A stretch of 63,204 nt of DNA from Nitrososphaerales archaeon (lineage in GTDB: Archaea; Thermoproteota; Nitrososphaeria; Nitrososphaerales; Gagatemarchaeaceae), in contig JAJTZB010000008.1 of assembly GCA_032906765.1 (NCBI GenBank), forward strand, positions 1 through 63,204, written 5' to 3'. The notes beneath the pieces were generated by a model. That model did not search any database, was not told the DNA's origin, and worked only from the letters and a program-made list of their open reading frames with translations. Positions 1-23,247 of the stretch are shown piece by piece (within the stretch, counting starts at the first letter, position 1; every line of letters starts with the position of its first letter). A program made the position numbers and the translations under genes.

Positions 1-83
1 AGGGATTCGAACCCTTGGCCTCCCGATTATCAGTCGGGTGCTCTAGCCAAGCTGCTCGTCTTTCGACTCTGAGCTACCGGCCC
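1..83 (-). tRNA. tRNA-Ile(GAU), 3' end cut by window edge, D-loop intron
   Basis: Read on the minus strand, the 5' acceptor strand GGGCCGG (77-83) is followed by a D-arm, an anticodon arm with loop CTGATAA (anticodon GAU) and a T-loop TTCGAAT. The 3' acceptor strand lies outside the window. The D-loop is about 17 nt too long; removing 52-68 restores a standard GCTC...GAGC D-arm. This is a non-canonical intron just after the conserved AG of the D-loop, the same place as introns in the tRNA-Gly and tRNA-Ser genes here. A TATA-like ATTATAG (minus strand, about 107-115) sits 28 bases upstream. Confidence 0.9.
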
Positions 84-5282: not shown

Positions 5283-5418
5283 TGTACTCCTCTAATCTCC
5301 AGTTTGCTTCCTTATCGACCAATGCATTTCAGGTTATGGGTTTGGCCACAAGTTGCAACCACGCCACCGTCCTGTGAAGCACGGCAGCCTACCACCCTGA
5401 TAATGGAGCAGAATCAGT

Positions 5419-5479
5419 GGGCCGGCCAGGATTTGAACCTGGGACCTGTTCACGGGATTGAATTCCTAGAATGCTCGTC
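5419..5479 (-). tRNA. Orphan tRNA 3' half directly downstream of a homing endonuclease gene
   Basis: On the minus strand the last part reads as a clean tRNA 3' portion: variable loop AGGTC, T-arm CCAGG-TTCAAAT-CCTGG, acceptor CCGGCCC and discriminator A. It is preceded by TAGGACG, which resembles the 3' side of a D-arm, then by bases that do not fold into a regular anticodon arm. The 5' half (expected GGGCCGG...) is absent between here and the preceding tRNA-Val gene; the LAGLIDADG gene sits where the intron would be. It could be the remains of an intron-invaded tRNA or a split-tRNA 3' half. The anticodon cannot be assigned. Confidence 0.55.
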
Positions 5480-6343
5480 CTATGTCTTCGCCCCCTTTCT
5501 CATCCAAGCATAGACCGTATCATACGGCACTCTGGTCAGGAATTCTCTGGAGAGCTGGTCACTCACCTGCTTGCAACTCATGCCGCCAGCCCAAAGCCCC
5601 TCTGCTCGAGCTCTGAGCTGCCACGGCCATGGGGTCCATTGTCTTCGATAAGCAGCTCCGTCAAGAATCGCCTGCTTCCACTCCACGTTCAGATTCCCGA
5701 CTGTCTTGGCAAAGTCGCGTGTATTGACAGAGAATCTGATTTTCGGTTGCCTACTCACAATCTCTTTTGAGCCTGCGAAAGTCACTTCGCCGACTTTCCC
5801 ATAGGATCGAATCCTGCTCACTCGCATTCCAAGCCTTCTGCATAGAAGTCGCTCGAAATTCATTAGTTTGCGATGAGGCTCGATGCCAACCAAGTCCACT
5901 CTGTATTTTCCAACACTGCCATCGCTGTCAAACCGCCCACGAAGGTACGCGATCGGGAAGGCTTCGATTAGCCCTTTCAAGTTCGACAGGTTACGCCTCT
6001 GCCACCACAAAACGAAGTCCTTTGCACGATATCTCACCATCATGTGCCCTTCACTGTTGGGTCGCGATATTCTGACCCTTCTCCTCCGCAGGACCTTCGC
6101 GCACTCCTCATCGAACTTTCCGAGAAATCCTGTCGATTTGTTCTTGAGTTCGATTCGAGGGACGGGGACTCTGACAAGAATGCCCCCTCTAAGCACCTCT
6201 TGACTGGTGAAGTAGACCGAGCCATCACCCTTTAGCAGAACCCCCACTACATACGAGAGAGCCTGAAGATGAGCCACTGGCCAAAGATGGTCTGAACCGT
6301 CAAATGCCCGTGGCGGTCGCCACTTCAGCCTTCTCGACATCAT
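5480..6343 (-). CDS. LAGLIDADG homing endonuclease, double motif with C-terminal HTH
   Basis: The 287-residue protein has two LAGLIDADG helices, near residues 29-43 (ALSYVVGVLLKGDGSV) and near 130-144 (PIAYLRGRFDSDGSV), each with the metal-binding acidic residue, so it is a monomeric double-motif enzyme. The C-terminus (about 250-285) looks like a helix-turn-helix. Its own TATA (GCTTATAC, about 6364-6371) lies 25 bases upstream of the ATG, giving a leaderless mRNA. The stop codon abuts the orphan tRNA half, and the gene lies downstream of tRNA-Val(GAC) on the same strand, typical of archaeal endonucleases that home into tRNA or rRNA introns. Confidence 0.9.
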   Translation of the reverse strand: MMSRRLKWRPPRAFDGSDHLWPVAHLQALSYVVGVLLKGDGSVYFTSQEVLRGGILVRVPVPRIELKNKSTGFLGKFDEECAKVLRRRRVRISRPNSEGHMMVRYRAKDFVLWWQRRNLSNLKGLIEAFPIAYLRGRFDSDGSVGKYRVDLVGIEPHRKLMNFERLLCRRLGMRVSRIRSYGKVGEVTFAGSKEIVSRQPKIRFSVNTRDFAKTVGNLNVEWKQAILDGAAYRRQWTPWPWQLRARAEGLWAGGMSCKQVSDQLSREFLTRVPYDTVYAWMRKGAKT

Positions 6344-6393
6344 TACTGCAGCAGAAAGGAGTGTATAAGCAACAACGAGCCGGATTCAGTGGT

Positions 6394-6482
6394 GGGCCGG
6401 GGGAGATTCGAACTCCCGACCTTCGCCGTGTCAGAGCCTAACGCCAGAGGAGACGTCCTAAACCGAGCTAGACGACCGGCCC
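6394..6482 (-). tRNA. tRNA-Val(GAC) with a 14-nt non-canonical intron
   Basis: The gene has 89 bases. The acceptor GGGCCGG/CCGGCCC, D-arm GTCT...GGAC and T-arm GGGAG-TTCGAAT-CTCCC are regular. A 5-bp anticodon stem (TCGCT/GGCGA) around the loop CTGACAC forms only after removing 14 bases, 6438-6451, from the 5' strand of the anticodon stem (about position 28/29). The mature length is then 75. A TATA element (GCATAAAAG, about 6510-6518) is 30 bases upstream. Confidence 0.88.
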
Positions 6483-6724: not shown

Positions 6725-7996
6725 ATGGAAGGAAGCTCGGAGATCCCTGGATTCTACAAGATGTCCCCCGAGGAGAGGTTGAACCTCGTGAAGAAAGCGA
6801 CAGGGCTGAGCGAGGAAGAGGCGAAGTCTTTGGCAAACACCGGAGGCCTGCCCATGGAAGTGGCTGACAGGATGATAGAGAACGTGGTGGGCGGAATCAC
6901 ATTCCCGATGGGTATCGCCGTGAACTTCAGGATAAACGACAAGGACTACCTTGTCCCGATGGCGCTTGAAGAGCCATCCGTCGTCGCTGCCGCGAGCAAC
7001 GCAGCCAAGATGGCGAGGGTGAAGGGCGGGTTCACAGTCACCAACACGGGGCCTGTGATGATTGGCCAGATTCAGGTGGTCAACGTCGAGGACCCGAACG
7101 GAGCCAAGATGAGGGTGCTCAGTAAGAGGGAAGAGATACTGAAGAAGGCGAACGAACAGGACCCGCTCCTCGTCTCGCTGGGCGGAGGTGCCAAGGACCT
7201 TGCGGTCAAGGTTGTGCCGTCGATGAAGGGACAGATGGTCATAGCCGAGCTGATAGTGAACACCGGAGACGCGATGGGCGCCAACGCCGTCAACACTATG
7301 GCAGAGGCAGTCGCGCCGATGATTGAGGAGATCACGGGCGGCAGGGTCTTCCTGAGGATAATCTCGAACCTCGCTGACAGGAGGTTGGTGAGGGCCGCAG
7401 CCGTCTTCGACAAGGAGGCCATAGGTGGAGAGGAGGCTGCGGACGGAATAGTCTACGCGTACGCGTTCGCCGAGGCAGACCCCTACAGGTGCGCCACGCA
7501 CAACAAGGGGATAATGAACGGGGTCATCGCAGTCGCGATAGCGTGCGGCCAGGACATCAGGGCCCTCGAGGCCGGCGCCCACACCTACGCATCGAGAAGG
7601 GGCGCATACAAACCCCTCACGACGTGGGAGAAGAACACAGACGGAGACCTGGTAGGAACGCTCGAGATGCCGATGGCCGTGGGCCTCGTCGGAGGGGCGT
7701 CGAAGACACATCCAGCTGCAAGGGCCGCAATCAAAATCCTTGGCGTGAAGACTGCTACCGAGCTGGCTGAAGTGATTGGCGCGGTCGGGCTCGCGCAGAA
7801 CTTCGCCGCTCTAAGAGCGCTTGCAACAGAGGGGATACAGCGCGGACACATGCGACTTCACAGCAGGAATATTGCCGTGGCCGCCGGGGCTACGGGCAAG
7901 ATGGTTGACCTTGTGGCAGATAGGATGGTGCAGGAGAGAAAGATCAGGATGGACAGGGCCAAAGAAATTCTCGCCGAGCTGCAGAAGGGCAGCTAG
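6725..7996 (+). CDS. mvaA: Hydroxymethylglutaryl-CoA reductase, class II
   Basis: This 423-residue cytosolic enzyme interconverts HMG-CoA and mevalonate, the committed step towards archaeal isoprenoid lipids. Its sequence follows the class II (bacterial-type) pattern: ENVVGGITFPMGIAVNF near residue 57, the dinucleotide-site motif DAMGANAVNTMAEA near 181, ITGGRVFLRIISNLAD near 204 and a C-terminal His region RGHMRLHSRN near 376. Class I enzymes common in other archaea have DAMGMN-type sequence instead. Class II occurs in some archaea (Archaeoglobus, Thermoplasma), often with NADH preference. It appears to be single and promoter-proximal here, so it is probably biosynthetic. Confidence 0.92.
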   Translation: MEGSSEIPGFYKMSPEERLNLVKKATGLSEEEAKSLANTGGLPMEVADRMIENVVGGITFPMGIAVNFRINDKDYLVPMALEEPSVVAAASNAAKMARVKGGFTVTNTGPVMIGQIQVVNVEDPNGAKMRVLSKREEILKKANEQDPLLVSLGGGAKDLAVKVVPSMKGQMVIAELIVNTGDAMGANAVNTMAEAVAPMIEEITGGRVFLRIISNLADRRLVRAAAVFDKEAIGGEEAADGIVYAYAFAEADPYRCATHNKGIMNGVIAVAIACGQDIRALEAGAHTYASRRGAYKPLTTWEKNTDGDLVGTLEMPMAVGLVGGASKTHPAARAAIKILGVKTATELAEVIGAVGLAQNFAALRALATEGIQRGHMRLHSRNIAVAAGATGKMVDLVADRMVQERKIRMDRAKEILAELQKGS

Positions 7997-21375: not shown

Positions 21376-22519
21376 GTTCTTTGACCTCGCTCCTCACGCT
21401 CTCGTCCTCAATCGTTGCCCTGCTCCTCTCCTTCGGGTCGAGGGGGCTGGCACATTTTGGGCAGTAGAGCATCCCGGGGGATGCCTTCTCGGAGCATCTG
21501 GGACAGATTACGGGGGCAAACTCCGGCTTTGGCTGCTCAATCTTCGTCCCCGAGTACAGGGCCGTGAGCTTGTCGTCCAAGTCCTTCCCGGAGAGATGGA
21601 CGTACACCGCTGGCATCTTGCTGCTCATCGACCATCCGTACATCACCTTCAGCTCCGAGTCGGTGAGGAACTTGGCGTTCCTCGTGGCCGAGCCGTGCCT
21701 CAGCATGTGGTTGAAGACTCTCTTCTTGATCCCCACCTCCTTCGCTATCTGCTTGAGCCTCCTATTCCACCTGACCCAGCTTAGGCGGCGGTTCATGTAG
21801 TTGGTGCTCTCCGTCAGCCAGAGCGGTGCGTCGGGGTCGTTCCTGAAGGGGTGGGTCTCCAAGTGTTGAGATAACAGCTTCACGGAGCTAATCAGCCTTA
21901 CCACTCTTGAGCCCGTCTTCCCTCTCTCCACGTGGAGCCTTACTCCTCTGTCGTCGAATGAGACGCTTCCGACGTTGAGTGTCAACAGCTCGGTAGCCCT
22001 CAACCCGGCCTCGAACCCGACCGATAGCATCGCCTTGTCCCTCGGACTTGTCGCTGACCTTATCATCGATTCGACCTCCTGGCTGGTCAGGAATTGAGGC
22101 TCCTTCCTCTCGTTGGGCTTGATCGCGGTCTTGAGCCACCTTACCTCCTCTGGGTATGGTGTCTCTTTGTCTATGTTGCCGTACCGAACGAACTTGAAGA
22201 ACCTCTTGATGGCGAATATGTAATCGGAGATTGTGTGGGCGGTATAGCCTGAATCGCGCTGCAACCATACGACTAGCCCCTCAATATGCTCTCGTTTTGC
22301 GTCCTTGGTCTGCGCTCCAAGGTGCTCCATCGCCTTCTTGAGATGGAAGAGGTACTTGGCTAGCCTGCCAGTCGATACACCATGCGCTCTAAGATGCTGG
22401 ACGAAGTTCCTGATTAGTTCCTTATCCTGGGTCGAGATTACGCTCGATTCGCACAGAAGCTTCTCGGCATTAGCGAGGCTGTACTGGTAGTTGTATACTT
22501 CGTCCTCTGACCTGTTCAT
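21329..22519 (-). CDS. Tyrosine recombinase (integrase) of the element
   Basis: The protein has 396 residues from the ATG at 22519, which lies 26 bases after a TATA (CGTTAAAAAGC, about 22540-22549). It has an N-terminal SAM-like core-binding domain (about 1-130), then the catalytic domain with Arg in GLRATELLTL, HMLRHGSATR (HxxR box) and Tyr in VYVHLSGKD. A zinc ribbon follows (CPRC...CPKC, near 345-365), then a C-terminal helix. The intact gene shows that integration did not split the integrase (unlike the SSV type). It adjoins the attachment tRNA-Gly and presumably drives integration and excision. Confidence 0.92.
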   Translation of the reverse strand: MNRSEDEVYNYQYSLANAEKLLCESSVISTQDKELIRNFVQHLRAHGVSTGRLAKYLFHLKKAMEHLGAQTKDAKREHIEGLVVWLQRDSGYTAHTISDYIFAIKRFFKFVRYGNIDKETPYPEEVRWLKTAIKPNERKEPQFLTSQEVESMIRSATSPRDKAMLSVGFEAGLRATELLTLNVGSVSFDDRGVRLHVERGKTGSRVVRLISSVKLLSQHLETHPFRNDPDAPLWLTESTNYMNRRLSWVRWNRRLKQIAKEVGIKKRVFNHMLRHGSATRNAKFLTDSELKVMYGWSMSSKMPAVYVHLSGKDLDDKLTALYSGTKIEQPKPEFAPVICPRCSEKASPGMLYCPKCASPLDPKERSRATIEDESVRSEVKELRKIVERYLAGPQAS

Positions 22520-23161: not shown

Positions 23162-23247
23162 GGGCCGGTCGTCTAGTCTGGTAGGATAGTCCCTTGGCAA
23201 AGATTCCAAATTGGGACAGGTCGGGGGTTCGAGTCCCCCCCGGTCCA
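23162..23247 (+). tRNA. tRNA-Ala(GGC) with a 12-nt intron at the canonical site
   Basis: The acceptor GGGCCGG/CCGGTCC contains the alanine G3-U70 wobble. The anticodon stem GTCCC/GGGAC encloses TTGGCA plus T once the 12 bases 23200-23211 are removed; the intron lies between positions 37 and 38, the canonical archaeal site. The mature tRNA has 74 bases including the discriminator A. The anticodon GGC agrees with alanine. Confidence 0.88.

What the first reader, a model, noticed from the sequence alone, without database searches (positions are those of the whole stretch)
5419..6343. Orphan tRNA 3' half behind a LAGLIDADG gene
A clean variable loop, T-arm and acceptor (matching 5' GGGCCGG) directly follow the stop codon of the endonuclease, preceded by a D-arm-like TAGGACG. 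There is no matching 5' half in cis; the upstream tRNA-Val is complete by itself. Either an endonuclease-carrying intron once split this tRNA and the 5' exon was lost, or the half is a split-tRNA gene whose partner is elsewhere.
Basis: partly seen in the sequence, partly recalled or inferred. Interest (0 to 1): 0.65.

Follow-up and report, generated by a model that had tools for sequence, protein, structure and literature searches.

The report
tRNA half left by homing endonuclease
A selfish DNA-cutting gene appears to have settled in an archaeal tRNA gene and left a leftover half tRNA beside a still-complete copy; relatives of the gene sit beside many other tRNA genes in related archaea, so this looks like debris of a tRNA-gene-targeting element rather than a working split tRNA.

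Summary
The half tRNA is real (minus strand, 5482-5418): variable loop, T-arm and acceptor fit tRNA-Val, directly after the stop codon of a two-motif LAGLIDADG gene. It is not a split tRNA: Val-GAC, -CAC and -TAC genes are complete, and all four GGGCCGGTNGTCTAG 5' halves in the genome belong to complete tRNAs. Relatives carry one intact tRNA-Val at this site and no extra half. The endonuclease's three close relatives all lie beside tRNA-Arg(GCG); two keep the mirror-image relic, a tRNA-Arg 5' fragment, 29-30 nt after the promoter-like CATAACTA where empty sites start the tRNA (30 nt). In the wider family 28 of 58 loci have a tRNA just 3' of the gene, 0 of 58 within 600 bp 5'. Best reading: a homing-type element inserts at tRNA genes, keeps one functional copy and leaves a decaying partial copy. 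Cleavage and mobility are inferred. Sugahara 2012 described the same layout in Caldiarchaeum with an ORF not identified as an endonuclease; the LAGLIDADG identity, the range of tRNA targets and the clade-wise target choice were not found in the paper searches made. New variant of a known kind.

The parts
6393..6482 (-). Intact tRNA-Val(GAC) gene (anticodon by my reading) with a short intron at about 6451-6438; splice points inferred from intron-free relatives
   Evidence: intron-free relatives
5480..6343 (-). LAGLIDADG endonuclease gene, 287 aa, two LAGLIDADG-type motifs and a C-terminal region that looks like a helix-turn-helix (my reading)
   Evidence: wider profile matches I-DmoI in the PDB
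5476..5482 (-). TAGGACG, same as the D-arm 3' side of the intact tRNA-Val; its TAG is the stop codon of the endonuclease gene (possible insertion junction)
   Evidence: 7 nt only, suggestive
5418..5447 (-). Orphan tRNA-Val 3' part: variable loop, T-arm, acceptor 3' strand, discriminator A
6725..7996 (+). Neighbouring gene used as anchor for the empty site (HMG-CoA reductase by my reading; not run against a family library)

Best explanation
The half is the decaying remnant of a redundant tRNA-Val(GAC) copy made when a LAGLIDADG homing-endonuclease element settled at the tRNA-Val gene. Shown: the order intact tRNA, endonuclease gene, 3' half; single-copy (empty) sites in relatives; the same endonuclease subfamily at tRNA-Arg(GCG) with the mirror-image relic (a 5' fragment) in two of three cases; attachment of the wider family to tRNA genes on one side. 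Inferred: the enzyme cuts the tRNA gene (D-arm to variable-loop region); repair from an element-bearing allele copies in the gene together with part of the tRNA, so that one functional tRNA remains on one side while the displaced part remains on the other and drifts. The copied-in or intron-bearing tRNA may resist re-cleavage. The half itself most likely has no function.
For: Single intact tRNA-Val beside the same neighbour gene in 24 of 29 relatives' loci and no extra Val half in any of them. Close homologues in 3 of 45 other family genomes, all beside tRNA-Arg(GCG). Promoter-like CATAACTA to tRNA distance 30 nt in three empty sites, 29 nt to a 13-nt exact tRNA-Arg 5' fragment in G029 (0 of 1000 shuffles) and 30 nt to a decayed copy in G033 (p 0.011) (empty sites). 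28 of 58 wider-family places have a tRNA within 300 bp 3' of the match; 0 of 58 within 600 bp 5'. Targets follow endonuclease clades and two clades (4 and 7 rows) have none. Profile match to I-DmoI, E 8.2e-13.
Against: No cleavage or mobility shown. No half-tRNA relic above background in the 24 wider-family loci tested; in that plain-alignment test the window and G029 rank only moderately (2 and 4 of 27 controls at or above) and G033's best alignment lay elsewhere. G007 has no clear relic (p 0.113). The half keeps a perfect T-arm and acceptor while the anticodon region is unreadable, odd for even drift. The window protein alone is below the Pfam cut-off (17.3 against 22.5 bits), and the 3-row close-family profile alone finds no endonuclease in the PDB. 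In the window the intact tRNA is on the 5' side of the gene, unlike its relatives.
Confidence: 0.75

Rival explanations
1. Split tRNA: the half is a functional 3' gene, trans-spliced to a 5' half made elsewhere.
For: Perfect T-arm and acceptor, exact pairing with GGGCCGG; split tRNAs exist in some archaea (PMC3293823 introduction).
Against: All four GGGCCGGTNGTCTAG 5' halves start complete tRNAs; Val-GAC, -CAC, -TAC complete; no readable Val anticodon arm before the half.
Confidence: 0.04
2. Integrase scar: a tyrosine-integrase element used the tRNA-Val gene as attachment site, then lost everything but the endonuclease gene as cargo.
For: Archaeal integrases use tRNA genes and leave partial copies (PMC3293823). 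The genome has 7 tyrosine-integrase matches, three of them about 0.5-1.1 kb from a tRNA.
Against: The nearest integrase match is 15 kb away (window 21590-22093); the unit is about 1 kb with only the endonuclease ORF; the endonuclease family itself recurs at different tRNAs.
Confidence: 0.1
3. Alternative 3' exon: one transcript from the tRNA-Val promoter can join the shared 5' part either to the near 3' part or, by splicing out about 1 kb, to the far half at the variable-loop position used by introns in relatives.
For: The half's homology begins at AGGTC, where variable-region introns end in many relatives.
Against: No CGCC-type pairing partner before AGGTC in the half, unlike the relatives' introns (my reading); the near 3' part already makes a complete tRNA.
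Confidence: 0.05

Closest known systems
Insertion at tRNA-Thr(GGU) of Caldiarchaeum subterraneum (Sugahara et al. 2012, PMC3293823; abstract, passages and section 6 read)
   Same: tRNA 5' fragment, then an insertion with one ORF (813 bp), then an intact tRNA carrying an extra intron; relatives of the ORF elsewhere in the genome, one of them next to another tRNA-Thr. Same layout as locus G029.
   Different: There the ORF was assigned only to DNA-binding/recombination by SVMProt and an integrating plasmid was proposed; here the gene is a LAGLIDADG endonuclease, many tRNA kinds are hit, and the window keeps a 3' instead of a 5' piece. Whether that ORF is a LAGLIDADG gene could not be tested.
I-DmoI type archaeal LAGLIDADG homing endonucleases
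   Same: Two-motif LAGLIDADG protein; PDB profile match of the 15-row family alignment.
   Different: I-DmoI comes from an rRNA intron (recalled); here the gene is free-standing beside tRNA genes and no spliced intron around it was found.
Mitochondrial mobile introns that carry pieces of their host gene (Tremella fuciformis, PMC7315562, passages read)
   Same: An endonuclease-linked element brings a partial copy of the host gene, leaving a truncated duplicate and exchanging gene pieces.
   Different: Protein genes with introns in fungal mitochondria; here tRNA genes in archaea.
Split tRNA genes (Nanoarchaeum type, recalled)
   Same: A lone tRNA 3' half in the genome.
   Different: No partner 5' half and a complete gene for the same tRNA.

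Membership tests
LAGLIDADG homing endonucleases | Two LAGLIDADG helices with a catalytic acidic residue each | tested here: met
   VVGVLLKGDG (D40) and YLRGRFDSDG in the window protein, aligned with LGDG and FLRGLFDSEG in relatives
LAGLIDADG homing endonucleases | Match to a curated family model | tested here: inconclusive
   Window alone 17.3 bits, below the LAGLIDADG_3 cut-off of 22.5; 13 of 15 aligned members match it at E up to 0.01; profile matches I-DmoI at 8.2e-13
LAGLIDADG homing endonucleases | Site-specific cleavage of the empty allele and homing | not testable with these tools
   Only empty and filled sites were compared
Split tRNA | Separate 5' half gene for the same tRNA | tested here: not met
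   Four 5' halves, all in complete genes
Split tRNA | Trans-spliced mature product | not testable with these tools
   No RNA data
Integrase attachment-site scar | Integrase gene within the element | tested here: not met
   Nearest of 7 tyrosine-integrase matches is 15 kb away
Group I intron | Ribozyme core around the gene | tested here: not met
   Rfam gathering scan of the window lists only tRNAs and SRP RNA; divergent introns could be missed
Caldiarchaeum tRNA-Thr type insertion | ORF of the insertion homologous to this one | not tested

The most novel reading that the evidence does not exclude
These archaea host a diverse set of LAGLIDADG endonucleases, each lineage attached to one or a few kinds of tRNA gene, that home into tRNA genes, swap tRNA halves and select for introns in the cut site. 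They would be a direct engine of the heavy tRNA intron load and of tRNA halves that could become split tRNAs.
Probability: 0.35. Interest if true: 0.82.

Novelty: new variant of a known kind. Interest (0 to 1): 0.6.

Why it matters
Why archaeal tRNA genes are broken up by introns or into halves is an old question; protection from integrating elements was proposed (Randau and Soll, as cited in PMC3293823). A tRNA-gene-attached endonuclease family gives a concrete agent that can be tested: cutting assays on intron-free against intron-bearing tRNA genes would decide it. At the tRNA-Arg(GCG) site a variable-region intron is present in 3 of 3 loci with the endonuclease and 0 of 15 without (my reading; not independent by descent).

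Tried and rejected
Split tRNA (rejected). A Gly(CCC), Ile or Met half, considered while reading the sequence (acceptor, T-arm and the 31-nt identity point to Val). Integrase scar. Alternative 3' exon (kept as a low rival). Half-tRNA relics in the wider family: local alignment with shuffles or cross-locus controls showed none above background. Homologues in IMG/VR: none. Structure prediction was too poor to use. Paper searches; none listed a LAGLIDADG gene lodged at archaeal tRNA genes with a half-tRNA relic; subscription papers and preprints are mostly outside that library. One search used a wrongly spaced pattern and is not used.

Rows left out: of 64 match rows, 3 split pairs were merged and the window itself and two matches in very long frames (G260, G238) left out, giving 58 places; three more long-frame matches (G040, G027, G028) stayed in. 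Five of the 58 end within 300 bp of a contig edge on the 3' side, and several have short 5' flanks. The tree used 40 of the 58 plus the window. One search examined the 18 LysRS-linked tRNA-Arg loci matched. One search examined 30 of the 36 reductase matches listed (those with loci).

Full report
Observation. On the minus strand the ORF 6343-5480 ends in TAG, which overlaps TAGGACG; 28 unreadable bases follow, then a perfect variable loop, T-arm and acceptor strand (5447-5418). A strict T-arm pattern followed by CCGGCCC occurs 3 times in the window and never in 100 shuffles. Thirty-one bases match the end of a tRNA in another family of the order at 31/31 (Val by my reading). Upstream lies a complete tRNA-Val(GAC) with a short anticodon-stem intron.

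Not a split tRNA. Rfam finds 36 tRNA matches in the 1.77-Mb, 13-contig genome. By my reading of the sequences Val-CAC, Val-TAC and Val-GAC are all complete. The 5' half pattern GGGCCGGTNGTCTAG with up to one mismatch occurs four times, always starting a complete tRNA.

Empty site at tRNA-Val. The neighbouring gene (HMG-CoA reductase by my reading) served as anchor. Of 30 loci examined, 25 (the window and 24 relatives) carry an intact tRNA-Val-type gene on that flank; 5 show none in the stretch held, two of which end soon after the gene. One of the 24 (G012) reads as anticodon CAC. None of the relatives has a second Val half; stray T-arm-like matches in L081 and L088 lack a tRNA context. The relatives differ in introns at up to four positions and in T-stem sequence, so which 3' part in the window is ancestral cannot be decided.

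The endonuclease. The protein has two LAGLIDADG motifs. The window protein alone reaches only 17.3 bits with LAGLIDADG_3 (cut-off 22.5), but 13 of 15 aligned members match that family at E up to 0.01, and the 15-row profile matches I-DmoI chains at 8.2e-13. The 3-row close-family profile alone matches no endonuclease in the PDB. A structure model was poor (pLDDT 56.5).

Close relatives. In the family, 3 of 45 other genomes hold a close homologue. All three lie upstream of tRNA-Arg(GCG), at the site that in relatives follows lysyl-tRNA synthetase, sometimes with one or more genes between. In three empty sites (G016, G018 and the window's own genome) a promoter-like CATAACTA lies 30 nt before the tRNA. 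In G029 it lies 29 nt before GGGCCCGTAGCCT, the first 13 nt of a tRNA-Arg, after which the endonuclease gene and a whole second tRNA-Arg follow. In G033 it lies 30 nt before a decayed copy (p 0.011). In G007 no clear relic remains (p 0.113). The G033 gene is broken by a TGA. So the window (3' part kept) and the Arg loci (5' piece kept) are mirror images. In the window the C-terminal tail seen in the homologues is cut short at the tRNA-like TAG.

Wider family. A 15-row profile found matches in 33 of 400 class genomes. Of 58 places examined, 27 have a tRNA T-arm 27-260 bp 3' of the match, and Rfam adds one (tRNA-Cys in the window's own genome): 28 of 58. On the 5' side 0 of 58 have one within 600 bp (one at 673). 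Of 20 loci rescanned with Rfam only that Cys locus gained a tRNA. Targets as I read them: Ala, Phe, Met, Pro, Asn, Asp, Gln, Cys, Ser, Val, Arg. Most of these tRNAs are convergent with the endonuclease gene. G032 has a different endonuclease clade at the same reductase-linked tRNA-Val. In the tree most Cys users and most Ser users lie together across genera, the Arg users and the window form one clade (100), and two clades (4 and 7 rows) have no tRNA at all; the fewest target changes are 14 on 27 labelled rows, against 11 genus changes, so fidelity is partial. The places are not independent, since several are probably orthologous.

What speaks against. No half-tRNA relics stand out in the 24 wider-family loci tested; in that test the window and G029 rank only moderately (2 and 4 of 27 controls at or above), because plain alignment ignores pairing and position, and G033's best alignment lay elsewhere. 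Homing itself is not shown. The perfect T-arm next to an unreadable anticodon region is unexplained; a junction at the variable loop, or some use of the T-arm and acceptor, would explain it.

Introns. At the tRNA-Arg site a variable-region intron is in 3 of 3 endonuclease loci and 0 of 15 others (my reading). This fits the idea that an intron shields the restored gene, but shared descent is not excluded.

Prior work. Sugahara et al. 2012 (PMC3293823; abstract, passages and section 6 read) describe a tRNA-Thr 5' fragment, a 1,868-bp insertion with an 813-bp ORF and an intact tRNA-Thr with an extra intron in Caldiarchaeum, and propose an integrating element. The layout is the same as in G029; the ORF was not identified as LAGLIDADG there (the word does not occur in the main text), and I could not fetch it. 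Tremella mitochondrial introns that carry host-gene pieces (PMC7315562, passages) are a mechanistic parallel. The archaeal group I introns in the passages seen of PMC6125680 are in rRNA genes.

Verdict. The half is most likely a functionless relic of a homing-endonuclease element at a tRNA gene. The larger point is a LAGLIDADG family attached to many tRNA genes in these archaea.

Noticed in passing
G000:C2:135081-135854 (L181): A second endonuclease gene of the wider family in the window's own genome, with one in-frame TAG in the match, lies about 27 bp from a convergent tRNA-Cys.
   Followed up: partly
window 21590-22093: Tyrosine-integrase match about 1.1 kb from the tRNA-Ala(GGC by my reading) at 23162-23247.
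   Followed up: no
window 1-83 (minus): tRNA-Ile-like gene at the contig edge with what looks like an intron inside the D-arm, cut by the contig end.
   Followed up: no
L068-L097, tRNA-Val beside the reductase gene: At one syntenic tRNA-Val locus the T-stem sequence and introns at up to four positions vary between relatives, as if 3' parts had been swapped.
   Followed up: partly
L105, L106, L103, L115, L117: D-arm introns in tRNA-Arg(GCG) sit after GGGCCCGTAGCCTAG, within 2 nt of where the G029 tRNA-Arg fragment breaks off.
   Followed up: no
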